IMG/VR virus record: IMGVR_UViG_3300020156_000034
Location: 1-55,703 of that record
Length of the DNA stretch: 55,703 nt
Reading direction: 5' to 3' (one strand)
From: a virus
In this document: positions 3,466 through 54,483 of the stretch, piece after piece
How the letters are laid out: each line of letters opens with the position of its first letter
How positions within the stretch are numbered: position 1 is the stretch's first letter
The notes under the pieces: generated by a model
The model's input: the letters and a program-made list of their open reading frames with translations, nothing else
What the model was told of the DNA's origin: nothing
Database searches by the model: none
Program-made: the position numbers and the translations under genes

Positions 3466-3782
3466 CTGACAACTCCAAATCCTTAATCGAGAACCCGAAA
3501 TCACCGGCCGTCCGCCAGGACGTTACCCCGCCCGGCACGTCGCCGACGGCGGCCGGTGTCTTCCGGGAGGCGATCGACCGGCAGATGGACCCGCTCCTCG
3601 AGCGGCCGGTGCACGGGATCGAGGCGGCGGCGGGTGTCGTGAACGGCCAGGGTGTGGTGGAAGGGCAGGTGAGTGTGGCGACGAAGAAGGCGGGCACGTT
3701 CGCGCTGTGGGGCCAGGCCGCGACTGGTTTCGGCTACACCGTCATGGCGAAGTGGCGCAAGACGTTCGGCGGTGGCAAGTGA
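3462..3782 (+). CDS. Hypothetical protein, 106 residues
   Basis: The GTG at 3462 overlaps the previous stop (GTGA). The N-terminal 45 residues are Pro/Ser/Thr-rich and likely disordered; the C-terminal third (TFALWGQAATGFGYTVMAKW) is weakly hydrophobic and glycine-rich and could touch a membrane. I do not recognise it. It is part of the packaging operon. Confidence 0.5.
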   Translation: MTDNSKSLIENPKSPAVRQDVTPPGTSPTAAGVFREAIDRQMDPLLERPVHGIEAAAGVVNGQGVVEGQVSVATKKAGTFALWGQAATGFGYTVMAKWRKTFGGGK

Positions 3783-3998
3783 AGGCGGCGGAAGTCGAGA
3801 TTCACATGCCGGGGTGTCGTGTGCGCGGTGGTGGCCGCTGCACGTGCGATTGGGCCGAAATCGAGGAAAAACGGGCCAACGAGCGAAATTCGACCGCACA
3901 GGAGGCTCGTAGAGCGACGATCGCAACGTCGCCCATACCCCAGCACCCCCCGTTTGACGAGGAAATCGCCCGCATGGAAGGGGAGGGAGGGGAACCGC
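3779..3998 (+). other. Open frame leading into the tRNA-Trp gene
   Basis: A GTG at 3779 overlaps the preceding stop (GTGA) and opens a frame that has no stop until 4858, passing straight through the tRNA. Its first 70 codons look protein-like: a Cys cluster (CRVRGGGRCTCDW) then a charged helix and a PIPQHPPFDEEIARM segment. Either a small zinc-type protein was joined to the next gene by insertion of the tRNA, or the frame is open by chance. The gene with a clear own identity starts at 4082. Confidence 0.35.
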
Positions 3999-4073
3999 GG
4001 GACGGTGGTGCAGCGGCCAGCACTCCGGTCTCCAAAACCGGCGACGCGGGTTCGACTCCCGCCCGTCCCGCCA
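3999..4073 (+). tRNA. tRNA-Trp (anticodon CCA)
   Basis: A full cloverleaf can be drawn. The acceptor stem is 3999-4005 with 4063-4069, all seven pairs intact. The D stem is GTGC/GCAC with an eight-base loop containing GG, and the anticodon stem is CCGGT/ACCGG with loop CTCCAAA (anticodon at 4032-4034). The T stem is GCGGG/CCCGC with loop TTCGACT. Discriminator G at 4070 and an encoded CCA at 4071-4073 complete it; G73 is the tRNA-Trp discriminator. It lies within the packaging operon. Confidence 0.92.
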
Positions 4074-4081
4074 CATCCTTC

Positions 4082-4858
4082 ATGATCCGCAACACCCTCT
4101 ACGGCTTCAATCCCGAGCGGTGGCGCAGCGCGGCACGCCCGTTCGTGCTGCGCGGCGACGTCGTTAATCACCACGCGGACGAGCCGTTGTTCGCGCCGCA
4201 CCCGAAGCAGGTCGCGTTCTTCGAGGGCGACGCGCCGAGGATCTTCCCGAACTATCCGCCGTCGGGCCGCCCCGTCGAGGAGCTGCCAAAGCATCAGCGC
4301 CGGCAGTATGGCGGCCGATCCGTCCGCCAGTGGTTTCGCGAGATGCGGGCCGAGGAGTTCGCCCAGGCAGTGGACTACCTGGAGTTCAGCATCCTCGGCG
4401 GCAGGTGGCGAAACGGCGTGCCGTGGACGCTGTTCGACACGCAGGCCGTGATCGAGCGCGAGACCGCTGCGCACTACTCACCGGAGCCGGACGAGTTCGC
4501 ATACTTCGTAGACGCGTCAGGGCTTCCAACCGCTCGCGAGCTGTGGAACCACTCGGGCCGGTCTGGCCGCTACGACATCCACCGGGAGGTGATCCAGCTC
4601 TTCGCCGCGCATCCGGGGGACTACAAGGTGGTACGTTCGCGCCGGTGCTACGCAGGCCGTCCCGCGGGAACCATGTGGAGAGTGCGCCGCGATCGCGTGA
4701 TGGACCCGAAGGCGTTCACGGTGATCGGAACCGACGATCCGGGCGGCCGCTGCAAACCAGAGTACTGGTCGCTTCCCCGGCTCGAGGACCACGAGCGGCT
4801 GTGTGATGAGCCTGACCGCGAAGGCGGCGGCATCCTCGGAGGGACAGGGAGATGGTAA
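4082..4858 (+). CDS. Hypothetical protein, 258 residues
   Basis: The ATG at 4082 starts eight bases after the tRNA-Trp CCA end and has no Shine-Dalgarno. The frame is open upstream to 3779 through the tRNA, so a longer 359-residue product cannot be excluded. The protein is rich in aromatic residues and Arg (GFNPERWRSAARPF; SRRCYAGRPAGTMWRVRRDR) with no motif I recognise. It ends overlapping the next gene by seven bases. tRNA processing would leave it on a nearly leaderless message. Confidence 0.55.
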   Translation: MIRNTLYGFNPERWRSAARPFVLRGDVVNHHADEPLFAPHPKQVAFFEGDAPRIFPNYPPSGRPVEELPKHQRRQYGGRSVRQWFREMRAEEFAQAVDYLEFSILGGRWRNGVPWTLFDTQAVIERETAAHYSPEPDEFAYFVDASGLPTARELWNHSGRSGRYDIHREVIQLFAAHPGDYKVVRSRRCYAGRPAGTMWRVRRDRVMDPKAFTVIGTDDPGGRCKPEYWSLPRLEDHERLCDEPDREGGGILGGTGRW

Positions 4859-5166
4859 AGACCATCCGCCACGCGATCGCCCACCTGCTCGGCCTGGCGC
4901 CCGCGAGCTGGCACGTCATGTTCGACGGCACCGGCACGCCGTTCTGCCGCGTCCAGTTCTGCGAGACGTGCTTCGCGCCCCTGGCGGTGGCACCGCTCAA
5001 TCTGTCGAAGCGCGAGCCCGCGCGGTTCGAGCCGGTGGCGCTGGCGCCTGGTATCGGTCAGCTCCGCCCGATCGAGCCGCCACGCCGGCCGACGGTGGCC
5101 GACGTCGGCGCATTCCTCCGGGGAGATCCCGCATCCGTAGGTGCGGGCCGTGGTCGCGAGGGGTAG
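4852..5166 (+). CDS. Hypothetical protein, 104 residues
   Basis: A good ribosome site (GGAGGGACAGGGAG region) precedes the ATG at 4852. The middle contains a possible metal or disulfide pair (FCRVQFCETCF: three Cys within eight residues), then a Pro-rich tail. It overlaps the large terminase start by about 26 bases. No known family recognised. Confidence 0.55.
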   Translation: MVKTIRHAIAHLLGLAPASWHVMFDGTGTPFCRVQFCETCFAPLAVAPLNLSKREPARFEPVALAPGIGQLRPIEPPRRPTVADVGAFLRGDPASVGAGRGREG

Positions 5167-6811
5167 CAAGGCGCAGCTGATCCCGAGGGAGATCACCTTC
5201 GGGTACAAGAGCAAGGCCACTGGCCAATGGTGCGGGCCCCAGCCGAAACAGGCGCTCGCGCACGTCTGCCTCGCGGATCACCTCTTCTACGGCGGCGCCG
5301 CGTTCGGCGGCAAGTCCGAGTTCGCGATCGTCGAAGCGATCACCACCTGTCTCAGCCGCCCTGGCTGCGAAGTCGCCATCTTCCGCCGCAAGCACACCGA
5401 GCTGAAGAAATCGCTGATCCCCCGCTTCATGCGGCTCGTGCCGCGCTGGATGGCGAAGTTCAACAAGCAGGATATGTGCGCCGTGTTCTTCAACGGCTCG
5501 ATCCTGTGGTTCTGCCATTGCCAGCACGAGGACAGCGTCTACACCTACCAGTCGGCCGAATGGCTGCTCCTCATCATCGACGAGGCGTCGCACTTCACCG
5601 AGTTTCAGGTCGATTACCTCATCACCCGCGTGCGCACGTCCGTTCCGGGGTGGCGAACGCGTGTCATCTTCACCTCGAACCCGGGGAACGTCGGCCACGG
5701 CTGGCTGAAACGGCGCTTCGTGCGGCCGACCGCCGCGGAGCTGGGGAACCGGCCGCCCCCCGCGCCGATGGAGGTCTGGCGACCGCTCAAGACGGACCCG
5801 GCCGACCCGACACCGCCCGAGCACGTGAAGACGCGGTGCTTCATCCCGGCCCGCTCCGAGGACAATCCCGCCGGCATGGAGGCGGACCCGACGTACATGG
5901 CGGGCGTCTGGGCGCTCGGCGGGGACAAGGCGAAGCAGCTCGCCCTGGGCGATTGGGACGCGAACGATTCGATGATCGTCGGCCCCGACTGGCGCGCGAA
6001 CCACCTCGTGACCGAGGGTGACACGCTGCTGCTGCACCAGGGCGTGCCGCTGCACACGCTGCTCGACTGGCACGTCGTGAACAAGCCCGATTGGAAGCCG
6101 CCGGCCGGCGCGACGATCTTCGGCTCCGTCGATTACGGCTACGGCGCGCCCTGGTCGTTCCACCTCCACGCGGTGTTTCGCTCGGCCACCGGGAGCACGC
6201 ACACCAGGACGTTCTTCGAGTACTACAAGGCCAAGGTCCGCGACGTCGACCAGGCGCGCCTGATCCGCGAGGCGATCGTGCGGCTCATGGCGTCGAAGGC
6301 GGAGGGTGGCTGCTCGATGGAGAAGCCTACGTGGATCGTCGGGGACCCCGCCATGTGGAACAGCCGTGCGGAAATGGGGATCTCGAAGTCGATCGCGGAG
6401 GTCTACACCGATGAACTCGTGAAGATCGGCGTCGGCTTCATGCCGGGCGCGAAGGGGCGCGGCGCGCGCGTCTCGAGGCCGCAGCGGTGGAAGGATGCGC
6501 TGTCCACCGGCGAGGATGGACTCCCGCGCTGGTCCGTCACCACCGCCTGTCCGCACCTGATTCGCACCGTGCCCGAGATCCCCTGGGACGAGGATGATCC
6601 GGAAGTGGAGGACGGCGAGTCCGAGAACCACGCCTATGAGGGCGTCGGCCGGTTCTTCGAGGCGCGGCCGTTCGCCGCGCGCGCGGCGGCGCCGGATCCC
6701 TACAAGGATCTCAGCGACGATCCGATCTCGAAGGCGCACGCTGAGGCGCTGGCGAAGCGGGCGAGCCCGACGCCGAAGGTGCTCGACATAACCGGCATGA
6801 TCGTCACCTAA
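5141..6811 (+). CDS. terL: Terminase large subunit (packaging ATPase/nuclease)
   Basis: The 556-residue protein has a Walker A loop GGAAFGGKS at residues 51-59, Walker B LLLIIDEAS with D147 and E148, and a coupling motif FTSNPGN near residue 178. It packages DNA into the prohead through the portal using ATP. The C-terminal half holds candidate RNase H-fold nuclease acids, D331 in SVDYGYG and D402 in VGDPAMW, which would cut the concatemer. Length and domain order fit the family. The GTG at 5141 overlaps the upstream gene; GTG 5150 is an alternative. Its stop overlaps the reverse-strand gene. Confidence 0.93.
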   Translation: MRAVVARGSKAQLIPREITFGYKSKATGQWCGPQPKQALAHVCLADHLFYGGAAFGGKSEFAIVEAITTCLSRPGCEVAIFRRKHTELKKSLIPRFMRLVPRWMAKFNKQDMCAVFFNGSILWFCHCQHEDSVYTYQSAEWLLLIIDEASHFTEFQVDYLITRVRTSVPGWRTRVIFTSNPGNVGHGWLKRRFVRPTAAELGNRPPPAPMEVWRPLKTDPADPTPPEHVKTRCFIPARSEDNPAGMEADPTYMAGVWALGGDKAKQLALGDWDANDSMIVGPDWRANHLVTEGDTLLLHQGVPLHTLLDWHVVNKPDWKPPAGATIFGSVDYGYGAPWSFHLHAVFRSATGSTHTRTFFEYYKAKVRDVDQARLIREAIVRLMASKAEGGCSMEKPTWIVGDPAMWNSRAEMGISKSIAEVYTDELVKIGVGFMPGAKGRGARVSRPQRWKDALSTGEDGLPRWSVTTACPHLIRTVPEIPWDEDDPEVEDGESENHAYEGVGRFFEARPFAARAAAPDPYKDLSDDPISKAHAEALAKRASPTPKVLDITGMIVT

Positions 6812-7472: not shown

Positions 7473-7972
7473 TGGGCGCCGGCGCCAACGTGACCCGCAA
7501 ACGCGTCGTGGACCTCGCGGAAGAGTGCCTGAAGCGCACGAACCTGTGCATTTCGGACCTCTCGAAGCTGAACGCGTCGCACAACGCGCTCGCGAACAAG
7601 ACCGGCGCTGACATCGAGAAGATCGAGCAGCGCGTGACGGGCGCCTCGGCGTGGTGCCAGCGGACCGAGAACAGCCTGACGAACCACATGGGCGCTCAGG
7701 CGCTCGTGGACCAGGAGCTCGCCGCGGAGATCGCGACGCTCCGGTCCGATCTGGTGTGGTTCGGGCGGCACCTGACCCGCTGGCAGCGGTTCCGCTGGCT
7801 GTGGACAGGGAAGGTTCCGGTCAACGCCATCGCAGCGCAGGAGCGGAGGGATCGCGAGGCGTACGCTGCGCGCTTCGCCAAGACGACGTCGCCGGCGCCG
7901 GAGAAGACGGTCCACCGGACGGATAGCGTCCCGTCCTACTCGCCGAACGCGGCGCACAGGCCCATTCCGTGA
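7472..7972 (+). CDS. Coiled-coil hypothetical protein, 166 residues
   Basis: The ATG at 7472 overlaps the previous stop. The N-terminal 90 residues are heptad-like (DLAEECLKRTNLCISDLSKL; ALVDQELAAEIATLRSDL) and probably form a coiled coil, followed by a Trp/Arg-rich segment (HLTRWQRFRWLWTG) and a Pro/Ser tail. Its place between terminase and portal suggests a head-related or accessory role, without direct evidence. Confidence 0.55.
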   Translation: MGAGANVTRKRVVDLAEECLKRTNLCISDLSKLNASHNALANKTGADIEKIEQRVTGASAWCQRTENSLTNHMGAQALVDQELAAEIATLRSDLVWFGRHLTRWQRFRWLWTGKVPVNAIAAQERRDREAYAARFAKTTSPAPEKTVHRTDSVPSYSPNAAHRPIP

Positions 7973-8259
7973 GCTGGCTACGCCTCCTCCTGCCGTTCAT
8001 CACCCGCGGCATGCACGCCGCGAAGATCGAGCGTCTCGAGGACCGGATCGCGCACCTCGAAGGCCAGGTGGCGACCCTCACGGAGGAGCGGAACTACTGG
8101 CGGACGCGCGGCGAACGCCTGATGGATGCTGCCCTGGCGCGCGCGGGCGCGATCCACGAGCCGACGATGGTGAACAAGCCGCCGGCGCCGCCGGTGAGTG
8201 CCGCGGCGCTCCTGACGTCGGCGCTGGGGATCAGCGAGATTGAGTCGGGGAGGTCCTGA
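7969..8259 (+). CDS. Small coiled-coil protein with hydrophobic N-terminus
   Basis: Ninety-six residues starting at a GTG that overlaps the previous stop (GTGA). Residues 2-12 (SWLRLLLPFIT) are hydrophobic and short for a membrane span. Residues 17-50 have clear coiled-coil spacing (KIERLEDRIAHLEGQVATL). The stop overlaps the next ATG by one base. No family recognised. Confidence 0.55.
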   Translation: MSWLRLLLPFITRGMHAAKIERLEDRIAHLEGQVATLTEERNYWRTRGERLMDAALARAGAIHEPTMVNKPPAPPVSAAALLTSALGISEIESGRS

Positions 8260-8459
8260 TGGCGGCGGTCGTGTGGAACACGGTGCCGGAGATTCAGCGG
8301 TCCTACGGGACGCTGGCGGCCGCGATCGAGCGGTATCTCGACGGGGACATGCCGGTGGAGCAGCAGGTCGCCATCGAGCGGGTGGTGGATCCGGCGCTGA
8401 TTGCGGCGATCGCGCAGACGCGGTTGCTCAAGCGGTTGGTCCAGGGGCTGGGCTGTTGA
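8259..8459 (+). CDS. Small helical protein, 66 residues
   Basis: ATG at 8259 overlaps the preceding TGA. The sequence is compact and helical (TLAAAIERYLDGDMPVEQQ; AAIAQTRLLKRLVQGL). It ends six bases before the initiator-like tRNA, so one transcript may cover both. Function not recognised. Confidence 0.5.
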   Translation: MAAVVWNTVPEIQRSYGTLAAAIERYLDGDMPVEQQVAIERVVDPALIAAIAQTRLLKRLVQGLGC

Positions 8460-8465
8460 AAGTGA

Positions 8466-8541
8466 CGCGACGTGGAGCAGTGGTCAGCTCGTCCGGCTCA
8501 TAACCGGGAGGTCGCAGGTTCGAGTCCTGCCGTCGCAACCA
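8466..8541 (+). tRNA. Initiator-type tRNA-Met (anticodon CAT)
   Basis: A complete 76-base cloverleaf with encoded CCA (8539-8541). The acceptor is CGCGACG (8466-8472) against CGTCGCA (8531-8537), so position 1 and 72 are C and A, unpaired. The D stem GAGC/GCTC carries A11-U24. The anticodon stem is TCCGG/CCGGG around CTCATAA, with anticodon at 8499-8501. The C1-A72 mismatch and A11-U24 pair are the classic marks of bacterial initiator tRNA, and GTGGAGCAG and GGCTCATAACC match the usual initiator sequence. The three G-C pairs above the loop are retained in two of three positions, with pair 29-41 reversed. Confidence 0.92.
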
Positions 8542-8739
8542 GTTCGAGAACTTCGCAGGAGGATCCGCGCTTCGATCCTGCGTCTGTCGGGCGAGGGGGC
8601 GTCGCGCGGCGCTGATCCGAAGATCAACCCTCGGTCGAGCCAACATCTTGGCGGGTTCCGATGCCCCGCTCGTGAGCATCGGTGGTTGCGGGGCGTAGCG
8701 TAGACACCACGAACAAGCCGGGCGGGTTTGGTCGGGTGC
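8542..8739 (+). other. Non-coding gap between tRNA-Met and portal gene
   Basis: No convincing gene is present here. Just after the tRNA, CGCAGG and CCTGCG (about 8555-8581) frame a bulged hairpin that could stop or process the tRNA transcript. Farther on, GCCCCGC (8663-8669) and GCGGGGC (8688-8694) form a seven-base inverted repeat with an 18-base loop. The start-proximal element copy 2 closes the region. Confidence 0.4.
8717..8725 (+). promoter_or_regulatory. GCCGGGCGG start-proximal element, copy 2
   Basis: This copy lies exactly 23 bases before the GTG at 8740, the same distance as copies 3 and 4 have to their ATGs. That spacing is why I start the portal gene at GTG 8740 rather than at the TTG at 8728, which would overlap the downstream part of the element region. 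Confidence 0.5.
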
Positions 8740-11184
8740 GTGAACGAAGAGCAGGACATCGAGCAGTTGGACGACACCGCGGCGGATGCTCCCGCTCCCG
8801 CGACGTCCGCTGACGTGTCCCGGCAGAAGGGGCGGCAGGTCGACTATCAGGGCGCCGGCAAGCGCCTGATGGAACGCTGCATCACGGACGCCAAGAACAA
8901 CACCCCCCGCCTCGACCGTGACCGCGCCGACTGGCAGAACCTCCTCTTCCATCGCGGCGGACGCGACAATCACTGGTCCGTCTGGGACCGCACGACGCAA
9001 TCCTACGTCCCCCGCGGCACCGATCCCGAGAAGGGCGGCCTTCCGGAATGGGTCCCGCGGGCCTGCACGAACGTCTTCGCCACCAAGATCGACGGCATCG
9101 TCGCGATTCTCGACCAGTCGGACCCGTCGAAGCTGTTCTACCCCGCGACCGACGACGACGCGGACCGCGCGGCCGCCGAAGTGGCCGAGGACGCCGATCC
9201 CGTCCTCCTCGAGGAGATCGGGTACGACACCCACCGGCCGCAGTTGAACAAGCTCGCGACGCTGACCAACGGCGCCGCGCTCATCGTCTGGTTCGACAAC
9301 GACCCGAAGTACGGTCAGCAGGACATCCCGCTCCTCGCGTGCCCGACATGCGGCGTGCAGGTGACGCCGATGGTCCTTGAGGATGAGGGCAACGTCTGCC
9401 CGGGGCCGGAAGGCGCAGAGGAGCCCTGCGGCACCGACGGCGACACGTTCGAGCCGGTGATCGATCCGCTCGGCGTACCCCAGGGCGTCCCCTACAACAA
9501 GGGGAAGCTGTGCTCCGCGGTCATTCCGAGCTTCGAGTACTCCATACCGTCCTCCGCGCGCATCGCCAACTCGAACATGGTGCCCTGGGTGCTCACGCAC
9601 TCCAGCATGGCGAAGGAAGACGTCCTGGCGCGCTGGAAGAAGGCGAAAGCCGTGCTCGACCGCGCCTCGAACAACAAGGTCGGCGGCTCGCAGCGCGCCT
9701 TCGCGCGCGCGATGAAGCAGCTCTCGTCCCCGATCCGGGCGCAGCAGGGCGCCACGCTCACCAGTTCGGGGATGAACGAGCCGACGGTGTACATCCTCCA
9801 GCACGATCCCATCGACGAGGACGACTTCTACTTCCCGGACGGCTTCCACGGCGTGATGGTCGAGGACGAACTGGTCGAGTTCGGCCCGTTGCCGGTGAAG
9901 GACGACGACGACCGCGCGCGCAAGAGCATCTTGCTCCGGTCGTTTGCGAACTCGCCGGGCAGTCCGTACGCCAAGCCGCCGGCCGATGATCTCGTGCCGC
10001 TCCAGATCAGCCGCAACCTGGTCGAAAGCCTCATTCAGCTGATCCTCATGCACGACGCGGCGCCGCGGAACTGGATTCCGCTGAGCGTCACGCTCGAAAA
10101 CCAGCCGACCGGCCGCCCGGGCGAGTCCATCTTCTACCGCTCGACCATCCCGGGCGAGAAGCCGCAGACGGACCGCGGCGTCAATCCTCCCGAAGGTCTC
10201 TACAAATACCTCGAGATGATCGACGCGAAGTTCGAGGAGCTGTCGAAGCTCAATTCGGTCCTCGCGGGCGCGCGTCCCGAGGGCGATCCGACGCTCGGCG
10301 AGGTCCAGCGGCTCGAGGAGAACGGGATGCGGGCCTTCAAGGAACCGCTCGAACAGCTCATGACGTTCGAGCGCGACCTTTCCCGGCTCCTCCTCTGGCT
10401 GGCGAAAGACACCGCCTGGGCGGACCGCGCGCGCCGCATCCGCGGGGAGAACGGCCAGTGGGAGATCCGCGAGTTCAACGCCGCGGACATCGGCGGCAAG
10501 GTGGATCTCCTCATCGAGAAGGCGTCCGCCTGGCCGAAGAGCGTGCTGGCGCGCCGGATGGCGCTGAAGGAAGCCTTCGAGATGGGCGCGCTCCCACCGC
10601 CTGCCCAGGATCCGGAGCTGCAGCTCAAGGTCCTGACCGAGCTCGGCCTGACGGAGATGAAGCCGTCGATGGACGCCGACCGGAAGCAGATCGCGCGCGA
10701 ACTCGATCGCTGGAAGGCGGCGACCATGCCGCAGGAGATCGCGCCGCCGAACCCCGACACGCAGGAATTGCCGTTCCACTTGTTCTTCAAGAAGCAGTTC
10801 CTGAAGACGGAGGAGTTCGAGCAGCTGACGGCCGCCAATCCCGCTACGGCGCAGGCGATGGTCCAGCACGTTCAGATGATCCAGCAGATCCTCGCGCAGC
10901 AAGCCGCCGCGGCCGCCGCCGCACAGAACCCGCCTCCGCCGGACAACCGCACGCCCGCCGAGAAGGGCGACGGTTCCGCCGTGGAAGAGGCCGTGGCCAG
11001 CGGGGCGCTCATGCCCGCCGATGCCGCACCGCAGGCCGATCCGATGCAGGACGCGTTGAACGCGGGGGTGCTGATGCCCGCCGCGGCCGTGCCTGGTCCG
11101 ACCGGCCCCTCGATCGACCAGTTGATGGAGGCGGGCGCGATCGCGCCGGCGCCGCAGGATTCCGCGACCGCGCCCCCCGGATAG
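8740..11184 (+). CDS. Portal protein
   Basis: The 814-residue protein lies directly after the terminase block and before scaffold and capsid genes, and it has portal-like features. These are an N-terminal helical region with conserved Trp/Asp (DRADWQNLLFHRG), a large mixed alpha/beta body, the stretch FEELSKLNSVLAGARPEGD typical of portal stem regions, and an Ala/Gln/Pro-rich C-terminus. It would form the dodecameric DNA channel. Residues 201-230 carry a four-Cys cluster (C201, C204, C220, C230) resembling an inserted zinc ribbon, which is unusual for a portal. Large portals of 700-830 residues are typical of short-tailed phages. Confidence 0.8.
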   Translation: MNEEQDIEQLDDTAADAPAPATSADVSRQKGRQVDYQGAGKRLMERCITDAKNNTPRLDRDRADWQNLLFHRGGRDNHWSVWDRTTQSYVPRGTDPEKGGLPEWVPRACTNVFATKIDGIVAILDQSDPSKLFYPATDDDADRAAAEVAEDADPVLLEEIGYDTHRPQLNKLATLTNGAALIVWFDNDPKYGQQDIPLLACPTCGVQVTPMVLEDEGNVCPGPEGAEEPCGTDGDTFEPVIDPLGVPQGVPYNKGKLCSAVIPSFEYSIPSSARIANSNMVPWVLTHSSMAKEDVLARWKKAKAVLDRASNNKVGGSQRAFARAMKQLSSPIRAQQGATLTSSGMNEPTVYILQHDPIDEDDFYFPDGFHGVMVEDELVEFGPLPVKDDDDRARKSILLRSFANSPGSPYAKPPADDLVPLQISRNLVESLIQLILMHDAAPRNWIPLSVTLENQPTGRPGESIFYRSTIPGEKPQTDRGVNPPEGLYKYLEMIDAKFEELSKLNSVLAGARPEGDPTLGEVQRLEENGMRAFKEPLEQLMTFERDLSRLLLWLAKDTAWADRARRIRGENGQWEIREFNAADIGGKVDLLIEKASAWPKSVLARRMALKEAFEMGALPPPAQDPELQLKVLTELGLTEMKPSMDADRKQIARELDRWKAATMPQEIAPPNPDTQELPFHLFFKKQFLKTEEFEQLTAANPATAQAMVQHVQMIQQILAQQAAAAAAAQNPPPPDNRTPAEKGDGSAVEEAVASGALMPADAAPQADPMQDALNAGVLMPAAAVPGPTGPSIDQLMEAGAIAPAPQDSATAPPG

Positions 11185-12444: not shown

Positions 12445-13791
12445 ATGAAGAATCGCATGTCACTCGCCGGCACGCTGGTCCTGCTCATGTCAGGCCAGGC
12501 GTCCGCGCACATGCCGGGGTCGGACCTCTCGCAGTGGGACCCACTGTTCAAGGACGACTACGCCCCGGCCATCGTCAATCAGCTCGGTGACGAGAACGTC
12601 ATCCTGAAGTTCATGGAGTCCGAGACGCCGGACGACACCTGGCAGGGCCGCAAGAAGGTCATCCCGATCAAGATCGGCCGCAATTGGGCGACCGGCTCGA
12701 TCGGCGCCGGCGGCCGCCTGCCGCAGGCGGGTCGCTCGGCCTACGAGAACTTCGAAGTGCCAATGCGGGACACGTACACCCGCGTGGGCTTCGAACGCTG
12801 GGTCATCGAGCAGAGCCGCAACAAGAAGGGCTCCTGGCAGCAGGTGATCCCGGCCGAAATGGAAGCGGCCACCGAGGACCTCGCGTTCCAGCGCAACCGC
12901 GTGTGCTGGGGCTACGGTTCGGGCATCCTCGCCCTGGTCAACGGCGCGCAGAACGCCGACACCACGATCGAAGTGGACTCGCCCGGCAACGTGGCGGGCT
13001 CGGTCATGGGGAACCGCTACCTGTTCGGGGATGACACCTCGGGCATGTTCGTGGCCTTCCTCGACTCGAACAACGTGGTGCAGGGCACCGGGACGATCAC
13101 CGGCTACTCGGCCGCGGGCACGTCGATCACGGTCGACACCCCGATCACCTGCGACGACAACGCCAAGATCGTCATGGCGCAGAACGCGTCGCAGAACTCG
13201 TACAACAAGGAGCCGGAAGGCATCCTGGCGGGGATTGACGACGGCACCTACGTGGGCACGTACCACGGGCTATCGCGCACGCAGTACCCGATCCTGAAGT
13301 CGCACATCGTCACCGGCGTGGGGGCGCTGTCGCTCGACGCGATCCAGCAGCCGATCGACGCCGTGTCGATCCGCGTGGGCAAGACGATCGACTTCTTCGC
13401 CGCCGAGCACGCTGTGCGCCGCGCCTACCTCGCGCTGCTCGAGGCCGACCGCCGCTACACCGGCGCAAACCTCATGGCGCCGGACGGCGGCACGAAGGCC
13501 GCGAAGAAGCCCACCGGCAAGGCGATCACCTACGGCGACATCCCCATCGTCGTGGACCGCGACGCGCCCTACCGGATGCTCTTCGGCATCAACAAGGGCT
13601 CCTGGACCCGCTACGTCGAGAACGAGGGCCAGTGGGCCGACGACGACGGGCACGTCATGAAGTGGGTGTCCGAGTACGACCAGTGGACCGCCTTCTTCTA
13701 CATGCTGGACAACTTCCACTGCCAGCAGAGCAACCGCAACTTCCGCATGGAAGGCATCGACGTCACGCAGCTGCTCGCGCACTCCTTCTAA
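12445..13791 (+). CDS. Major capsid protein (with signal-peptide-like N-terminus)
   Basis: The 448-residue protein follows the scaffold and has the length and Gly/Asp/Trp-rich beta composition of HK97-fold or P22-type capsids (AVRRAYLALLEADRRYTGANL; DGHVMKWVSEYDQW). It would form the icosahedral shell. The first 22 residues are unexpected: a basic start (MKNRM), a hydrophobic core (LAGTLVLLM) and GQASA just before His23, exactly like a Sec signal peptide with an AxA cleavage site. Position 12490 offers an internal ATG that would skip most of it. A 10-base-loop hairpin follows the gene. Confidence 0.78.
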   Translation: MKNRMSLAGTLVLLMSGQASAHMPGSDLSQWDPLFKDDYAPAIVNQLGDENVILKFMESETPDDTWQGRKKVIPIKIGRNWATGSIGAGGRLPQAGRSAYENFEVPMRDTYTRVGFERWVIEQSRNKKGSWQQVIPAEMEAATEDLAFQRNRVCWGYGSGILALVNGAQNADTTIEVDSPGNVAGSVMGNRYLFGDDTSGMFVAFLDSNNVVQGTGTITGYSAAGTSITVDTPITCDDNAKIVMAQNASQNSYNKEPEGILAGIDDGTYVGTYHGLSRTQYPILKSHIVTGVGALSLDAIQQPIDAVSIRVGKTIDFFAAEHAVRRAYLALLEADRRYTGANLMAPDGGTKAAKKPTGKAITYGDIPIVVDRDAPYRMLFGINKGSWTRYVENEGQWADDDGHVMKWVSEYDQWTAFFYMLDNFHCQQSNRNFRMEGIDVTQLLAHSF

Positions 13792-27401: not shown

Positions 27402-30400
27402 GTGCCGCAAAAGCCGGTCACGCCTTCGGTCTGGGAAGAGATCGACCTCGAGCTGTCAGCGCAGACGCCGTCGGTGGCGACGCCTGCGGGGAAGTCCGTC
27501 TGGGATGAGATCGACGCTGCGTTGAGCGAGTCGGAGCGCAGGCGGGCATCCTACGGCGAGATGGCGGACCAGATGGGGCCGGCCGTCCCGTCGGTTCTGC
27601 CGATGCGTGCGGACCGGATGACGTCACGGCCGCAGTCCGCGATACTGCCGCAGGTCCGCCAGCCCGCCGCAACGCCACCGGCACCGATCGCCACCGGGCC
27701 CAGCCTGGACGAGATCATCGAGGCGAAGAAGACCGGCCGAGAGATTCCGCGCATCGCTCCGATGGCCGCGCACGAGCCCTCCGCCGACCAGGCAACGTCG
27801 CGCGCGATCGCCACGGCACGCACGGCGCAGCCCGCCACGCCCCACACGGAGGACGCGCCGCCGGTCCCGTTCGGACTGCCGACGGCCATGCCGGCGCACC
27901 GCCAGCAGGTGCGTATCAAGCCGGAGGCGACCGTCACCGACCGGGCGATCGACGTCGGTCTGACGGCGGTGAAGGGAGCCATCAGTCTCCCTGAAACGGC
28001 CGTCGGCCTGGCCGATGTCGGCCTGCAGGGCTTCCTGAACGCCGGCAACCCGAACGGGCCATTCCCCGGCGGGATCCTCGGGAAGGGCCTCGAAGCCGTC
28101 GGCTTCCATCCGGCGCTCGCGAAGCAGGTGCTGGACCAGTACTACTCCGACCGTCAGAAGTTCGCGAATCAGAGCGTGGAGCAGGCCGACGGCCTGATTG
28201 CCACCGCTGTCGAGGCACTGCGCAACCCCGAGACGATCGTGCACGCCGGTATCGAATCGCTGGCGCTGATGGGGGCTGGCGGCTTGGCCGGGCGGGGCAT
28301 GGCGAAGCTCGGCATGGCTCGACACCTTGCGCCGGGCGTTGGCGAAGGTGTCGTGGCGCTCGGATCCGGAGCTGAAGGGTTGCGGCAGCAGACGCCGACC
28401 GGCACTCTGACGGCCCCCCAGACGGCGATTGCTGGCGCGTCTGGCGCGCTGACAACTGGCTTCGGGTTGCTCGGCAGCAAGATCGCGAAGGGGCTGCGCA
28501 TCGCGGACGTTGACACGATGCTCGCCGGCGCCGCCGCCGATGGCGAAGCGGCGCGCGGATTGGTGCAGAGCATCATCTACGGCGCCGTCAGCGAAGGTTT
28601 GCTCGAAGAGTTGCCGCAGTCGGTACAGGAGCAGGTCGCGCAGAACATCGCGCTCGACAAGCCCTGGCATGAAGGCGTGGACCATGCGGCCGTGGTCGGT
28701 GCGTTCACCGGCGGGCTGATGGGCGGTGGATCGCAGGTCATCGACCGCGCAGGGTCTGCCCTGCGTCCCACACCGCCGTCCACGCCAGAGGAGTCGTCGC
28801 GGGGTCAGGCCCCGTCACCTGCACCGGGGGCTGCTGGCGAGGCCGCGCCCCCGGTGGTGCCGCCTGTGGCTGCTCGGCCGGGCGACACACTGATGGAAGC
28901 ACCGGTTGCCCCGAGCCCGGACGCTACCCCTGTTGCGCCCGCGACGACACCTGCTGCCTCTGATCCGATCATTCAGGCGATCGACGAAGCCTTGGCCGAA
29001 ACGCCAGCGCCGGCGCCGGAGTTCGCCCCGGTTGGCGCAGAGGACCGCTCCCAGCTGTCAGCTCTCAGCTCTCAGCTGTCAGCTCCCGGCGGCGATGTGC
29101 TCGACCGCGTCACCGGGAAACTGGCGAGCGGTGAGCGACTCGGCACGCCGGAGGCGCGCGCGGCGTTCGAAGAGCAGCAGCGGGTGGACCTGAGTCGGAA
29201 GTCGGAAGTCGGAAGTGCGAAGCGGGAAAGCGGCGACGTCCACAAGTTCAGCTCAACACAGGTGGACCTTCCTCCTGCCGCTGCTACCAAGATCCGTGAG
29301 CTCGCAGCAAGCATCCCAGATACTGACCTGGCGGCCGACGGAAGGGAATCGACGCCACACGTCACGGTCAAGTACGGACTCCACACAAGGGACGTCGAGG
29401 AGGTGCGAAGCCTTCTGGCGAACGAGCGGCCCGTCACGGTCACGCTGGGACGCACTTCTCACTTCGCCGGCGTGGAGGATGGGACTGCGGACGCCGTCAT
29501 GGTGGATGTCGACTCACCTGACCTCCATCGGCTCAACGCGAAGATCGCAACGGCGCTGAAGACCACCGACACGTACCCGAATTACAAGCCGCACGCGACG
29601 ATTGCCTACGTCAAGCCCGGGCTCGGCGAGAAGTACTCCGGCCGAACTGATCTCGAGGGAGAGACCATCACGCTCGACGCGGTGACCTTCTCCAGCCGCA
29701 CTGGTGACACGTTCACCATACCGCTCGGGCCGGCCAGCGGTGGCCGTTCGGCCGCGGAGATGACCGACGAGGAGCTGGCCGCCTCCATCATCGCGGAGGT
29801 GGACGCCGAACTCGCCGGGGCACAGCCAGCAGCTGACCCTGTTCTGCTGGTCGGCTCGCGCTTCAAGGCCGAAGGTCGCGAGTGGTCGGTGAAGGCCATG
29901 AAGCCCGGCCAGGGGACGCAGTTGGAGCAGGTCGGCACGACAGGACCGGACAAGTCGCGCGTTACCAGTCGCTGGGTCTCGGACAGCGAGCTGCGCGTGA
30001 TGCTGGCGGAAGATGCAGCACCAGCGGCCAGCGAAGGCGACGCGGAGGCTAATGCGCCAACGAAGGGCGCGAAGCCGAACGTCACCCACAACGCCGAGCG
30101 GGATTCGATCGAGGTCCGCTTCAAGGCGAAGCCCACCCCGGAGGTACTGGCGGCCCTGAAGGGCGCCGGTTTCCGTTGGGCGAAGGGGAACCGCGCCTGG
30201 TATCGCGGACTCAAGGGCCGGTCCTACTATCCCGTGGCCGAGGAGGTCCGGAAGCTCGTACGGACCGCAGGCGGTGTCGCGGGCACGCCGGCAATCCCCG
30301 TCACGCCAAAGATCGTCGGGGAACCTGCCGGGAATGGAACTGTTCCTGTGACGCCGAAGGGACGCCGCGAGGTCGTCTCCGCGGACGGTGTCGTGTTCGA

Positions 30401-33400
30401 CCTTCAGACCGTGGATCCCGACAAGCTGATCGACTCGCTGTCAGGTCCGGCGAAGGGGAGCGTTCCGGTCACCCAGAAGCGCGAGGCGATCGCGGAGCAG
30501 CGGGCGAAGAACAAGGCAACCCGCGACGCGGCTATCCAGCGGATCAAGGACAAGCTGAAGAACCAGGCGACCGCAGGGATCGACCCGGAGATCGTCACCG
30601 AGATGGTGACCGTCATGCGGACCTACATCAGCGACGGGATCCTCGATTTCAAAGAAGCCGTGCTCCTGTTCCAGGAGGATTTCGGCGCGAACGCGCGGAA
30701 GCTCGATCGCTACTTCGAGATCGCGTGGCGGCGGCTGCGCAATGAGGACCGGAAGGTGGCGGACGTCCTCGCGGAAGCCGCGCCGAACGTGTTCGACGAG
30801 ATTGACGCCGAGGTCTCGAAGATCACGGTGAAGCCGTTCAACCTGTCTGGCAAGGCGGCCGAGGTCCAGGCGCGCGCGATCGCGGCGCTGGAGGCGGACC
30901 CGCGGGGTTTCAAGAATCGATACCTCGAGCAGTTCGGCCGGGTACTGAATGCCGACAACGCGTCGGAACTCTTCGAGGACTACGCCGCATCGGACGAAGC
31001 CCGGGCGACGCTGGGCGCGGCGGTGCGCGCGCCGGCCTCCGCTCTCATCGAAAGCCTGTTCGAGGACCTGCTGGCGCAGCCCCCGCTCCACGGCAAGGAA
31101 CCGATCGTGGTGTTCACGGCCGGTGGCAATGCCTCCGGCAAGACGTCGGGGATCACCGACGAGCGCAGCGCGGACATCGTGTTCGACTCCACGTTCAGCA
31201 GCCCGACGCCCTCACAGGCGAACGTCGAGCGGGTCCTCGCGTCCGGCCGTGATGCACGTGTGCGTTACGTCTACCGGGATCCGCTCAAGGCGCTCCTCGA
31301 TGGGGCGCTGCCGCGCGCGATGGGCGAAGCAAACGGGCGGACCGTGACCGTCCGTGGGCTGGCGGCGACCCACATCGGCTCGCGCGAGACGGTCCTGAAG
31401 CTGGCCGAGCACTACGCCGGCGACAGCCGCGTGACCTTTGCCATCCGGGAGAACACGGAGGACGACATCGTCGACCGCGACACCAAGTGGCTGAAAGGGA
31501 AGGCGTATAATGACAGAGATGTCCTCGAAGGCCACCTCTTCGACGCTCTCGACGCCGAGCACGCAGCCGGCCGGATCGACGACGCCGTCTTCGAAGGCAC
31601 CAAAGGTGTCGGCCGCCGCGCTGGCGAAGATCGACGCGGAGATGGACGCGGCGTTTCGCAAGAACGTCGTGAAAAACCGCGAGATTCAGCAGCGCCGGCG
31701 GACGGAACGTCTAAAGACGAGGTAGGCGCAGATGGAGAATCGACTCGGCGGCCTGGGGCTGCAGATTCTCAGCCACTGGACGGATCACCGGCCGAAGATG
31801 ACGGCCCGCCTGCGAGCGGCCGGAAAGCTGGAGGCCGCGGTACACGCGGCGGAGCAGCTGACACTGGAGGCCGAGGCGCAGGCGGTGTACGAGGGGATGG
31901 CGCCGGATCAGGCCAGGGAACTGCACCGGGAGACCTGGGCGTTCCTGCCGACGGAGGACGACGTCCCACACCTGCCAAGCGGCGATCCGGCGGAATGGCG
32001 CGCCCCGGCAAGTCCGGACTCGACTACCGTATTTCCGACGCCGACGCGATAGGTTCCGGCGGGGACACCGCCAAGATTCGCGCGAACCTCGCCGCGATCG
32101 AACTTCTCAAGCGCATCGAATCCGAAGGCCGCAAGGCCACAAAGGACGAGCAGGCCGTGCTCGTCAAGTACGTGGGCTGGGGCGGGCTGGCCTCCATCTT
32201 CAAGCCGGAGAACTGGTATTCCGGTGACGGCAAGAAGCTGAAGGACCTCCTCACCGACGAGGAGTACGCCGCCGCTCGGGCGTCCACACCGAACGCGCAC
32301 TACACCAGCAAGGACGTCGTCGACGCAGTCTGGAGCGCGGTCAAGCGCCTCGGCATCGACCACGGGCGCGTGCTCGAGCCCGCCATGGGCGTCGGGCACT
32401 TCTTCGGGCTGATGCCGCGCGAGCTGGCGGGCGACACCACGTGGGCGGGGGTGGAGCTCGACTCCACCTCTGGCCGCATCGCCCAGCAGCTCTATCAGTC
32501 CGCGCAGATCCAGATCAAGGGCTTCGAGGCGGCGTTGCTGCCGGACAACTTCTTCGACCTGGCGATCGGCAACCCGCCCTTCGGCAACTACCCGATCCAC
32601 GATCCGGAGTTCCGCGGCCGTCCTCGTGCGCTCTCCAGCGCGATCCACAACTACTTCTTCGCCAAGGCGCTCGACAAGGTCAAGCCGGGTGGCGTGATGG
32701 CATTCATCACGTCGCACTACACCATGGACGCTAAGGACTCGACCGTCCGCACCTATCTCGCGGAACGGGCGACCCTCTTGGGCGCCATCCGGCTCCCGAA
32801 TACCGCCTTCAAGGCGAACGCGGGGACGGAGGTGGTGACAGACATCATCTTCCTGCAGAAGCGGGAGCAGCCGGTCCGCGCCTCGGAGCTGTCGAAGGCG
32901 GACCTGCTCTGGACGCGCACCGGGAGCGTCCTCGACGGGAAAGCCACGATCAACGAGTACTTCATCCGAAACCCCCACATGGTGATGGGGGAGCACGCGC
33001 TCGAAGGCTCGATGTACTCGGACAAGGAATACACGGTTACGGCGACCGGTGACTTGGCCGAGCAGTTGAAGGCGGCCATCAAGAAACTCCCGCGCAACGT
33101 GGTCGACACGGCCCCGGTGCAGAAGCCGGTCGAGGAGCAGTTGGAGGAGTTCGTCCCAGCGCCCGACGTCGTGAAGCCCTACGCGTTCACGCTGCAGGAC
33201 GGCAAGCTGATGGTGCGTGACGGCGGCCGTCTGACGAAAGTGACGGTCCCCGATGGGACCAAGACGCGCATCGTCGGGATGATGGGGGTGCGCGACGTGC
33301 TCCGCGACACGATGCGCACCATGCTCACCGCTGAGGCGACGGACGCCGAGGTGAAGGTCCAGCAGGGGAAGCTCGCCAAGGTTTACGACGCCTTCGTCAA

Positions 33401-44072: not shown

Positions 44073-44122
44073 TGGTGGACGGCGCGAGGATCGAACTCGC
44101 GACCTCCGCATTGCGAATGCGG
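44073..44122 (-). other. attP core: 3' half of a tRNA-Ala gene
   Basis: On the minus strand this is a tRNA from the anticodon stem to CCA: stem CCGCA/TGCGG with loop TTCGCAA (anticodon CGC), variable AGGTC, T arm GCGAG-TTCGATC-CTCGC, acceptor GCCGTCC, discriminator A, CCA. T at position 70 implies the G3-U70 pair of tRNA-Ala. No matching 5' half is present upstream; the sequence turns AT-rich at once. A 3' tRNA half beside an integrase gene is the usual form of attP for tRNA-integrating phages: integration would restore the host gene. Confidence 0.85.
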
Positions 44123-44168: not shown

Positions 44169-44187
44169 CGTGATTCGTGCGTGATTC
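44169..44187. repeat. Paired CGTGATTC repeats, right of attP core
   Basis: CGTGATTC occurs at 44169-44176 and 44180-44187, 11 bases apart, mirroring the pair at 43962-43980 about 100 bases from the core. The second unit overlaps the integrase stop codon. Likely arm-type integrase sites. Confidence 0.5.
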
Positions 44188-45313
44188 AGGAAGCCCGTCG
44201 GCGCCGCGGCTTCACCGCTTCCACCGCTGCCGTCGCCTTCTCGTCGATCAGCTCGTGATAGATCCCAAGTACCACACCGGGGGTCTTCCAGCGCCCGACC
44301 TTCTGCACCGTCCCAATATCGTGACCACGCGTGAGCATCCGGGTCGTGCCGGTACGTCGCGTCGACCAGTGGAAGGTCAGTCCGCCGTTCTTCTTGCCGA
44401 AGGGGATCCCAGCCATTCCGCAGTAGCGTTCGAGCATCTGTCGGATCCCGTTGCGTCGATCGCGTTGCGTCTCGGCTCGGCGCCGACGCGAGAAGTAGTA
44501 CTCCGTCCCGTCGTCTGGCACCTGGTCGAGCGCCTTCTGCGCGCGTTTCGAGAGCGGTACCCAGAAGCCGCCTCCGGCCTTCGGGTCAGGAATCCACAGG
44601 ACGTTCTCATTGCGATCGGCGCGTTTGGCGTCGAGCACGTCCCCCATGCGCAGTAGGCTGTCGAGCGCCAGCAGGTAGAGCGCCTTGTCGTCTGGTGCCA
44701 TGACCTTGAGCAGCTTCGCTTCCTCGTCTTCTTCCATCAGCCGGCGCTTCGGCGTCGTCGCCTTCTCGTTCTTCATGCCGTAGAGCGGCGATGCCTCGAG
44801 ATACGTAGGTACGGCTGATTGCATGATCGTCTTTAGCAGTGCGACCTCTCGGTTCACCGTGCGAGGTCCGGCCTGGACCGTTCGCGCGGCGGTGCGGAAC
44901 TTGGCCGCGACCGTGGTCGGTTTTGTCAGCCGTGGGGTGATCCACTTCTCCTTCACAGTCGCCCTGGTGATAGCTGACAGCTGATAGCTTCCGAATACCG
45001 CCAGCAGCTTCGGCAGGATCTCCAACTCCCGCTCCTTGCCTTTCCGCTTCGGCAGTTCGTGTTCGCGGAACCAGTCCGCCTGCTCCGCGAAGGTGCGTTG
45101 CGGTTTCCGTCCTGGGATGTTGCCGCCGGCGAGCTGCGCCATGCGGGCGAAATAGTGGTGATCCGCCAGGGTGCGGTTGGCTTTCCGCAACTGCGGTGAT
45201 GGCGCATCGCTCCGGATCCTGGTCCGTTCGCGCAACGGGTTGCCCTTGGCGTCCGTGAAGCCGTCGAGCAGGATCCAGAAGAACGGTGAGTCTGACCGTT
45301 TGTAGACGCCCAC
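44186..45313 (-). CDS. int: Tyrosine recombinase integrase
   Basis: The 375-residue protein has an N-terminal DNA-binding part and a catalytic domain. Arg in LDSLLRMGDVLDAK fits the first catalytic Arg, HWSTRRTGTTRML the box II region, GRWKTPGVV the following motif, and Tyr in LGIYHEL the nucleophile. Box II is unusual: the expected HxxR reads WSTR, with a His one residue earlier. It catalyses insertion and excision at attP, which lies just past its stop. GTG start, one base after the upstream HTH gene stop. It is the last gene of the leftward lysogeny operon. Confidence 0.88.
   Translation of the reverse strand: MGVYKRSDSPFFWILLDGFTDAKGNPLRERTRIRSDAPSPQLRKANRTLADHHYFARMAQLAGGNIPGRKPQRTFAEQADWFREHELPKRKGKERELEILPKLLAVFGSYQLSAITRATVKEKWITPRLTKPTTVAAKFRTAARTVQAGPRTVNREVALLKTIMQSAVPTYLEASPLYGMKNEKATTPKRRLMEEDEEAKLLKVMAPDDKALYLLALDSLLRMGDVLDAKRADRNENVLWIPDPKAGGGFWVPLSKRAQKALDQVPDDGTEYYFSRRRRAETQRDRRNGIRQMLERYCGMAGIPFGKKNGGLTFHWSTRRTGTTRMLTRGHDIGTVQKVGRWKTPGVVLGIYHELIDEKATAAVEAVKPRRRRAS
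44969..44989 (-). repeat. Three tandem heptamers (GATAGCT/GACAGCT)
   Basis: GATAGCT, GACAGCT and GATAGCT lie head to tail on the plus strand within the integrase gene (coding strand units AGCTATC, AGCTGTC, AGCTATC), encoding SYQLSAI. The middle unit is the same heptamer as the tandem at 29052-29086 in another register. Confidence 0.8.
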
Positions 45314-54039: not shown

Positions 54040-54153
54040 CACGAACGAGGAGCACGGGTGAGGGTCCGGCGCCCACTCAATTCTGAGTCGCCCTTGGAAC
54101 AGGCGGCGCCCGTGCTTCGCGTTGGTGTTCTGACAGTTCAACAGGAGAGGTCA

Positions 54154-54483
54154 ATGGCAGACGAGACGAGCGGAACGGACCAGATCACGAAGAGCCACGA
54201 TGCGCTGCCCGCGAAGATGCGGCACCAGATCGAGGAGTGGTTCACGTACCACAAGCCGCAGGCGACCCAGCCCGAACGCTACGTACGGATCCGCGCCGCG
54301 GCGAAGCACCTGGCGCTGGAGATTGCGGCCTGCACGCCGGTGAGCGCGGACCAGAACGCGGCTTTCCGGAAGCTCCGCGAGACGGTGATGACCGCGAACG
54401 CGGCGATCGCGCTGGAGCCGGTCCCGACCGGGCTCGACCAGAACTTGCCAGCTACGACGCTCGGGGCGTTCCGCGGACTGTAA
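54154..54483 (+). CDS. Acb2/Tad1-type hairpin-domain protein (cyclic-nucleotide sponge)
   Basis: An AGGAGAGG site supports the ATG at 54154 (109 residues). Residues 20-85 show the pattern of the Acb2/Tad1 hairpin domain: IEEWFTYHKPQATQPERY, then IRAAAKHLALEIAACTP, then AFRKLRETVMTANAAIA. Proteins with this two-helix domain bind and sequester cyclic oligonucleotide or cyclic ADP-ribose signals of CBASS and Thoeris. Many members have unknown ligands. The gene lies in the early operon between recombination genes. Confidence in the family is fair, in the activity lower. Confidence 0.7.
   Translation: MADETSGTDQITKSHDALPAKMRHQIEEWFTYHKPQATQPERYVRIRAAAKHLALEIAACTPVSADQNAAFRKLRETVMTANAAIALEPVPTGLDQNLPATTLGAFRGL

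What the first reader, a model, noticed from the sequence alone, without database searches (positions are those of the whole stretch)
8466..8541. Phage-encoded tRNA with bacterial initiator hallmarks
The tRNA has the CAT anticodon, an unpaired C1-A72, an A11-U24 pair and G-C pairs 30-40 and 31-39, with pair 29-41 reversed. These are marks of formyl-Met initiator tRNA; phage tRNA-Met genes are more often elongator or Ile-type. Many genes here start with GTG (portal, giant protein, integrase, Cro-like, SbcC- and SbcD-like, hydrolase), so a private initiator could favour phage initiation. The link to GTG starts is inference.
Basis: partly seen in the sequence, partly recalled or inferred. Interest (0 to 1): 0.75.

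Follow-up and report, generated by a model that had tools for sequence, protein, structure and literature searches.

The report
Phage initiator tRNA, altered anticodon stem
A bacterial virus carries its own copy of the special tRNA that starts proteins, and this copy has one stem base pair turned around in a way seen in virus genomes but in no bacterial chromosome we could search, which hints that the virus keeps an initiator its host cannot easily attack.

Summary
The tRNA at 8466-8541 is real and initiator-type. All marks listed are there: CAT, C1xA72, A11-U24, G30-C40, G31-C39, reversed C29-G41. It scores 88.8 bits in an initiator model and 68.6 in an elongator/Ile2 model. Phage tRNA-fMet genes are already annotated, so the gene type is not new. 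Two things are less ordinary. (1) The C29-G41 stem, in its sequence context, occurs in 16 viral contigs; among 84,980 prokaryote species genomes it occurs once, on a phage contig. (2) In this phage's own family the tRNA sits in a variable gap of the packaging module. All 8 sound copies keep a 1-72 mismatch, G2-C71 and C3-G70, yet none has the canonical three GC pairs: they break them in three ways (C29-G41, C30-G40, A31xC39). Two relatives without the tRNA carry an Acb2/Tad1-type (anti-CBASS) gene in the same gap. Best reading: a working phage initiator that replaces or supplements the host's, with a stem changed so that something reading the host stem, possibly an anticodon nuclease, misses it. 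Initiator identity is strong; evasion is inference. The proposed link to GTG starts is not supported (11 of 52 starts with the tRNA, 14 of 41 without).

The parts
8466..8541 (+). initiator-type tRNA (CAT) with encoded CCA
   Evidence: ARAGORN; Rfam; models R1/R2
8466..8468 (+). acceptor start C1 G2 C3 (C1xA72 mismatch with 8537, G2-C71 with 8536, C3-G70 with 8535): formylation determinants
   Evidence: read-out; roles of these pairs from PMC7949028 (passages)
8492..8508 (+). anticodon arm (positions 27-43); C29 = 8494, G41 = 8506 form the reversed pair; G30-C40 and G31-C39 kept; loop CTCATAA 8497-8503
   Evidence: sequence; read-out
8259..8459 (+). 66-aa ORF that ends 6 bases before the tRNA (same transcript direction)
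7969..8259 (+). small ORF with matches upstream of portal in most relatives
   Evidence: tblastn
5141..6811 (+). terminase large subunit
   Evidence: phrog_979 3.7e-37
8740..11184 (+). portal protein (start codon uncertain: GTG 8740 or TTG 8728)
   Evidence: phrog_156 5.1e-11
12445..13791 (+). major head protein, used to find the phage family
   Evidence: phrog_14242 2.2e-46
54058..54483 (+). protein with Acb2/Tad1 hairpin domain (anti-CBASS type); relatives L429/L430 carry a homologue in the terminase-portal gap instead of the tRNA
   Evidence: PF24729 6.5e-11

Best explanation
A working phage initiator tRNA. It is transcribed as part of the head and packaging genes, cut out and charged with methionine by host enzymes, formylated by host Fmt because C1xA72, G2-C71 and C3-G70 are kept, and used by host ribosomes to start proteins during infection. 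Its most likely benefit is to replace or back up the host's initiator when that is depleted or attacked; the anticodon stem is changed (here C29-G41 for G29-C41) so that whatever reads the host stem, for example a VapC-like nuclease that cuts at A38/C39 beside these pairs, acts less well on it, while G30-C40 and G31-C39 still allow P-site use. Shown: gene, fold, initiator identity, virus-only occurrence of the stem in the collections searched, recurrent broken 3GC in the family slot. Inferred: transcription, charging, formylation, ribosome use, and the evasion step. My confidence by step: initiator-type gene 0.95; used as an initiator 0.75; stem change kept because it evades a host factor 0.4.
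For: Identity. Constraint: in the phage family all 8 sound copies (6 lineages) keep a 1-72 mismatch (CxA 5, AxA 1, CxC 1, CxU 1), G2-C71 and C3-G70, and loop CTCATAA, while 0 of 8 keep the canonical 3GC; 3 of the 8 (L427, L433, L437) have an elongator-like body yet still carry the mismatch. Virus-only stem: C29-G41 pattern in 16 viral contigs, 13 distinct tRNAs; 1 locus in 84,980 species genomes, on a contig with terminase, major head protein and integrase, while that genome's own best initiator is A29-U41. Slot: terminase-portal gap in window, L421, L422, L423, L425, L427; portal-next gap in L433, L437 and degenerate L428. Relatives L429/L430 lack the tRNA and hold an Acb2/Tad1-type gene in the same gap. 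Precedent: phage tRNAs defeat tRNA-cutting defences in experiments (PMC11555353, passages); VapC toxins cut tRNAfMet at A38/C39 (PMC4105405, passage). An RNA ligase gene lies 11 bases upstream of one C30-G40 viral initiator (L295).
Against: No expression data; no promoter- or terminator-like site within 8000-9000. The host is unknown, so its own initiator could not be compared. The anticodon loop, where VapC cuts and where the published evasion model places the mutations (PMC10264068), is unchanged. No nuclease is known from these calls to read pair 29-41. Departures at 29-41 as such are not phage-only: A-U and U-A are common in Patescibacteria genomes. 6 of the 15 family members whose gap could be read lack the tRNA, so it is dispensable. 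Family tRNAs are only 68-82% identical to each other, no closer than to E. coli metZ (75-91%) (degenerate L428 left out here), so the slot has been refilled rather than one gene kept.
Confidence: 0.45

Rival explanations
1. Dosage supplement with a drifting stem: the phage initiator simply raises the initiator pool for late structural proteins; 3GC variants are tolerated noise because the host supplies most initiation.
For: It lies in the head/packaging module in the window and in several unrelated phages (terminase next door in PaMx74, Elanor, QDWS359, Donnerlittchen and R6L; portal, head or terminase beside 6 of the 8 viral initiators whose neighbours were scanned). Canonical 3GC also occurs in phage initiators (for example Y6, QDWS359, VBv52).
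Against: Drift should also wear the acceptor determinants, which are kept in 8 of 8, and should leave some canonical stems in the family, where there are 0 of 8. Stem changes keep pairing in most cases.
Confidence: 0.3
2. Altered start-site selection: the changed stem loosens or shifts the ribosome's grip (16S G1338 on pair 29-41, A1339 on 30-40), so that phage mRNAs with unusual starts gain.
For: The C30-G40 swap ('M1') reduces discrimination against CUG in vitro and weakens both contacts (PMC11497404, abstract and passages); L421 of this family and 28 viral contigs carry exactly that swap.
Against: No excess of GTG in carriers: 11 of 52 against 14 of 41. CUG starts were not examined. The cited work concerns 30-40, not 29-41.
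Confidence: 0.1
3. Host-like variation: the unknown host lineages themselves have such initiators, and the phage copies just mirror them.
For: Cellular initiators do vary at 29-41. The hosts are unknown; genomes not in the collection cannot be excluded.
Against: C29-G41 in this context is absent from all 84,980 species genomes except on a phage contig. One phage family holds three different breaks.
Confidence: 0.08
4. Relic or passenger, not expressed.
For: No promoter-like site nearby; L428 holds a degenerate copy (34.1 bits in R1, below the Rfam gathering score); 6 relatives lack it.
Against: Intact fold, CCA and initiator marks in the window; 8 sound copies in the family.
Confidence: 0.05
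5. tRNA-dependent lysogeny: the phage tRNA stands in for a host initiator gene broken by integration.
For: Known in actinophages for other isotypes (PMC10865867, abstract and passages).
Against: The integrase (44186-45313, -) is followed by the 3' half of a tRNA-Ala(CGC) including CCA, so integration should rebuild an Ala tRNA (anticodon and isotype read by eye); the phage carries no Ala tRNA.
Confidence: 0.02

Closest known systems
Bacterial initiator tRNA (tRNAfMet), E. coli metZ/metW/metV
   Same: CAU anticodon and CTCATAA loop, C1xA72, G2-C71, C3-G70, A11-U24, G30-C40, G31-C39, variable loop AGGUC, A73; 63 of 78 aligned columns identical
   Different: C29-G41 instead of G29-C41; shorter D loop; acceptor stem CGCGACG
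Phage-borne tRNA-fMet genes (for example Stenotrophomonas phage vB_Sm_QDWS359, Caulobacter phage CcrSC, Sinorhizobium phiLM21-like prophages)
   Same: initiator-type tRNA in a phage genome, annotated as tRNA-fMet (PMC12429752, passage); QDWS359 also has it next to terminase
   Different: QDWS359 keeps G29-C41 and has U32; CcrSC has U29-A41
Micromonospora phage pMLP1 tRNA-Met(cat)
   Same: 91% identical tRNA, shared acceptor stem GCGACG/CGTCGC
   Different: G29-C41, A1xA72 by eye, no encoded CCA; no shared proteins with the window at E 1e-3
E. coli tRNAfMet M1 variant (C30-G40), laboratory construct
   Same: a single reversed pair in the 3GC run; natural viral tRNAs with exactly this swap were found here (28 contigs)
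   Different: the window has the swap one pair further out, at the G1338 contact
Phage tRNAs that evade tRNA nucleases (T5 tRNA-Tyr against retron-Eco7; mycobacteriophage C1 tRNAs)
   Same: phage copy of a tRNA that host toxins attack
   Different: no nuclease identified here; the loop is unchanged, the change lies in the stem

Membership tests
bacterial initiator tRNA (tRNAfMet) | CAU anticodon | tested here: met
bacterial initiator tRNA (tRNAfMet) | mismatch at 1-72 with G2-C71 and C3-G70 | tested here: met
bacterial initiator tRNA (tRNAfMet) | A11-U24 | tested here: met
bacterial initiator tRNA (tRNAfMet) | three consecutive G-C pairs 29-41, 30-40, 31-39 | tested here: not met
   two of three; 29-41 is C-G
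bacterial initiator tRNA (tRNAfMet) | scores above elongator Met/Ile2 in covariance models | tested here: met
   88.8 against 68.6 bits
bacterial initiator tRNA (tRNAfMet) | is formylated and starts proteins | not testable with these tools
   needs wet work
elongator tRNA-Met or tRNA-Ile2 (CAU) | paired 1-72 and pyrimidine 11-purine 24 | tested here: not met
   C1xA72, A11-U24 (E. coli metT and ileX have G-C and C-G)
nuclease-evading phage tRNA (van den Berg et al. model) | mutation in the anticodon loop near the cleavage site | tested here: not met
   loop CTCATAA as in E. coli metZ; the change is in the stem
nuclease-evading phage tRNA (van den Berg et al. model) | resists a host anticodon nuclease | not testable with these tools
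   host and nuclease unknown
[quoted passage not shown]
   attP-like site is tRNA-Ala(CGC)-like; phage tRNAs are Met and Trp

The most novel reading that the evidence does not exclude
Phage initiator tRNAs as a class are private initiators with reversed or broken 3GC pairs (C29-G41, C30-G40, A31xC39) that bacteria do not use in their chromosomes. They are kept in an anti-defence cargo slot beside terminase and portal, because host immunity attacks or polices the canonical 3GC stem of tRNAfMet.
Probability: 0.3. Interest if true: 0.8.

Novelty: new variant of a known kind. Interest (0 to 1): 0.52.

Why it matters
The run of three G-C pairs in the initiator anticodon stem is described as highly conserved across all domains of life and is where the ribosome grips the initiator (PMC7949028, PMC11497404; passages). 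Natural phage tRNAs that keep the formylation marks but reverse one of these pairs are ready-made test cases for that rule, including the C30-G40 swap previously studied as a laboratory mutant. If the change protects the tRNA, it would point to unknown immunity directed at translation initiation; a survey of coliphage, Shigella and Salmonella tRNAs found that phages generally avoid encoding tRNA-fMet where VapC targets it (PMC10264068, passage).

Tried and rejected
GTG link: tested with a crude start finder (longest ORFs of at least 100 aa, non-overlapping, start chosen by Shine-Dalgarno match); no excess in carriers. 83 of 135 genes in carriers and 51 of 92 in non-carriers had no clear Shine-Dalgarno match and were set aside, so the test is weak. 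Left out of it: L423 and L430 (near-duplicates), L428 (degenerate tRNA), L424, L431, L432, L434 (gap not held).

Host: the attP-like 49-base tRNA-Ala(CGC) half had no exact match in genome contigs; integrase had no match in phages; terminase gave no relatives in viral contigs; portal and head protein gave distant actinophage and spring-water phage matches only. Host stays unknown.

The viral total of initiators was not counted, because scans stop at 120 rows, so no enrichment ratio is given. The genome count covers only initiators in the context AGCTCGNN...NNAGG; how many of the 84,980 genomes have an initiator in that context was not measured. C30-G40 could be checked in cells only for Patescibacteria (0 of 192 genomes).

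Table: 272 of 292 pattern hits parsed; 20 dropped because the 5' half did not fit the parser (several have a D-arm insertion). The pMLP1 row is mis-registered and is not used; that tRNA is read. Donnerlittchen, Lak-A1 and Alone3 second tRNA fit the parser poorly (scores 8, 7, 6 of 11) and are not used for acceptor claims. Model R2 was built from 18 of the 19 rows selected (L398 left out for its truncated 3' end).

Papers seen: passages only of PMC10264068, PMC12482277, PMC7824862, PMC6293099, PMC11497404 (abstract and passages), PMC7949028, PMC12429752, PMC4105405, PMC8522696, PMC10865867, PMC11555353; PMC13015707 searched for fMet and initiator, none found. No paper on phage initiators with altered 3GC pairs was seen in searches of this open-access library; that does not show that none exists.

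Full report
What was checked. The window is one complete IMG/VR virus record of 55,703 bases. ARAGORN and Rfam both place a tRNA with anticodon CAT at 8466-8541.

Initiator, not elongator. Two covariance models were built: R1 from 30 other viral initiators with canonical stems and R2 from 18 CAT tRNAs of elongator/Ile2 type. The window tRNA scores 88.8 bits in R1 and 68.6 in R2. E. coli initiators score 97.6 against at most 62.9, elongators metU/metT 57.4 against 90.2, ileX 61.7 against 90.4. Global identity is 63 of 78 columns to E. coli metZ, 54 of 79 to metU/metT and 51 of 76 to ileX.

Phage tRNA-fMet genes are known. blastn of the tRNA finds similar DNA in 852 of 50,697 phage records at E 0.01, many of them partial or more distant matches. 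Several are annotated tRNA-fMet, and a survey of Sinorhizobium phiLM21-like prophages lists four tRNA-fMet(CAU) genes and one prophage with both types (PMC12429752, passage). So a phage initiator gene as such is a known kind.

The reversed pair. The pattern of an initiator anticodon arm with C29-G41 occurs in 16 IMG/VR contigs in a complete scan, 13 distinct tRNAs; the window itself is left out by the tool. In 84,980 prokaryote species genomes it occurs once. That one lies on contig C10 of a Patescibacteria bin that also encodes a terminase, a major head protein and an integrase, and the bin's best initiator, on another contig, has A29-U41. Thus no clear chromosomal case was seen. The limits are that the pattern fixes the bases around the stem, and that the number of genomes with an initiator in that context is not known. 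A-U and U-A at 29-41 are also common in Patescibacteria chromosomes, so they are not viral marks. C30-G40 was found in 0 of 192 Patescibacteria genomes. Why the C-G reversal should matter: 16S G1338 docks on pair 29-41 and A1339 on pair 30-40, and the C30-G40 swap weakens both contacts and relaxes CUG discrimination in vitro (PMC11497404, abstract and passages).

The phage family. An alignment of the major head protein with its match in spring-water phage MW202554 found 61 loci. Of these, 18 (L421-L437, L454; 58-79% identity in the head protein) share the order terminase - small genes - portal - next gene - head protein with the window. With the window that is 19 contigs: 8 have a sound CAT tRNA (window, L421, L422, L423, L425, L427, L433, L437), 1 a degenerate one (L428), 6 have none by ARAGORN and model R1, 5 of these also by a permissive Rfam search (L426, L429, L435, L436, L454; L430 not in that search), and in 4 the interval is not held (L424, L431, L432, L434). 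In six carriers the tRNA lies in the gap before portal, in L433, L437 and L428 in the gap after it. In the head-protein tree all carriers fall in one clade with support 100/100; inside it the branching is mostly unresolved.

The pattern in the family. All 8 sound copies keep a 1-72 mismatch, G2-C71, C3-G70 and loop CTCATAA. None keeps G29-C41, G30-C40 and G31-C39 together: window, L425, L433 and L437 have C29-G41; L421 has C30-G40; L422, L423 and L427 have A31xC39. L422/L423 and L433/L437 are near-duplicates, so these are 6 lineages. L427, L433 and L437 have elongator-like D stems (C11-G24) and score as high or higher in the elongator model (78.3/83.6; 71.8/72.5), yet carry the initiator mismatch; L422/L423 also have C11-G24 but score as initiators (86.7/66.8). 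The tRNAs of different lineages are 68-82% identical to each other and 75-91% to E. coli metZ, so the slot seems to have been refilled from different sources. The window tRNA is closest to that of Micromonospora phage pMLP1 (91%), which shares no proteins with the window.

The slot. In L429 and L430, which lack the tRNA, the same terminase-portal gap holds a 74-aa protein with the Acb2/Tad1 hairpin domain (PF24729, 9.5e-10), 54% identical over 63 residues to the window's own Acb2/Tad1 protein at 54058-54483 (L430 by its tblastn hit only). Acb2 and Tad1 are known, from recall, as sponges for immune signals of CBASS and Thoeris. A gap that holds either an initiator tRNA or an anti-immunity gene looks like a cargo site, but two near-identical contigs are one observation. 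Initiators next to terminase or portal also occur in unrelated phages.

How it probably works. Shown: an intact initiator-type gene with its formylation determinants, in the middle of same-strand packaging genes, 6 bases after a 66-aa ORF, with no promoter of its own by consensus. Inferred: it is cut from the long transcript, charged, formylated and used in the P site. The broken 3GC with kept acceptor is what would be expected if the tRNA must still start proteins but must not look like the host initiator at the anticodon stem. VapC toxins of several bacteria cut tRNAfMet between A38 and C39, next to these pairs (PMC4105405, PMC8522696, passages), and phage tRNAs do rescue phages from tRNA-cutting defences (PMC11555353, passages). 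A survey that proposed evasion by loop mutations noted that phages generally avoid encoding tRNA-fMet where VapC targets it (PMC10264068). Here the loop is intact and the stem differs, so the published model is not met as stated.

Against. Nothing is known of expression, host or nuclease. The tRNA is dispensable in the family. The dosage explanation with relaxed stem constraint is nearly as good. The GTG idea finds no support.

Verdict. Observation confirmed; initiator type confirmed; function as a private initiator for GTG not supported. New variant of a known kind; the virus-only C29-G41 stem and the family-wide loss of canonical 3GC with kept formylation marks are worth a specialist's time.

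Noticed in passing
window 3999-4073 (+): Second phage tRNA, tRNA-Trp(CCA), with a normal loop; no relative in the family carries it by ARAGORN. It overlaps ORF 3707-4858, whose true start is therefore probably further downstream.
   Followed up: partly
window 44073-44122 (-): 3' half of a tRNA-Ala(CGC) with CCA, right after the integrase gene (44186-45313, -): a likely attP. No exact match in 84,980 species genomes.
   Followed up: partly
L429 4320-4544 and L430 about 4344-4532 (+): Acb2/Tad1-type small gene in the terminase-portal gap, where relatives carry the initiator tRNA (L430 by tblastn only).
   Followed up: yes
L429 639-3203 (+): Terminase ORF of 854 aa whose homology to the window's terminase ends at 2129; the following sequence looks by eye like an in-frame intein with a nested HNH-like ORF at 2402-2977. 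Not searched.
   Followed up: no
viral contigs L264-L295: 28 viral initiator tRNAs with C30-G40, the same swap as the laboratory 'M1' mutant of E. coli tRNAfMet.
   Followed up: partly
L295 2227-3531 (+): RNA ligase gene (phrog_968, 6.9e-88) 11 bases upstream of a C30-G40 initiator tRNA.
   Followed up: no
L428 8599-8670 (+): Degenerate CAT tRNA with a very short D arm and loop CTCATAC in the gap after portal; below the Rfam gathering score.
   Followed up: no
L489 295-371 and L502 3463-3538: Initiators with CCCATAA loops, position 33 being C instead of the usual U: Janthinobacterium phage Donnerlittchen and the Patescibacteria bin G001.
   Followed up: no
window 27402-40265 (+): Single ORF of 4,287 aa with a GTG start in the late region; not analysed.
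   Followed up: no
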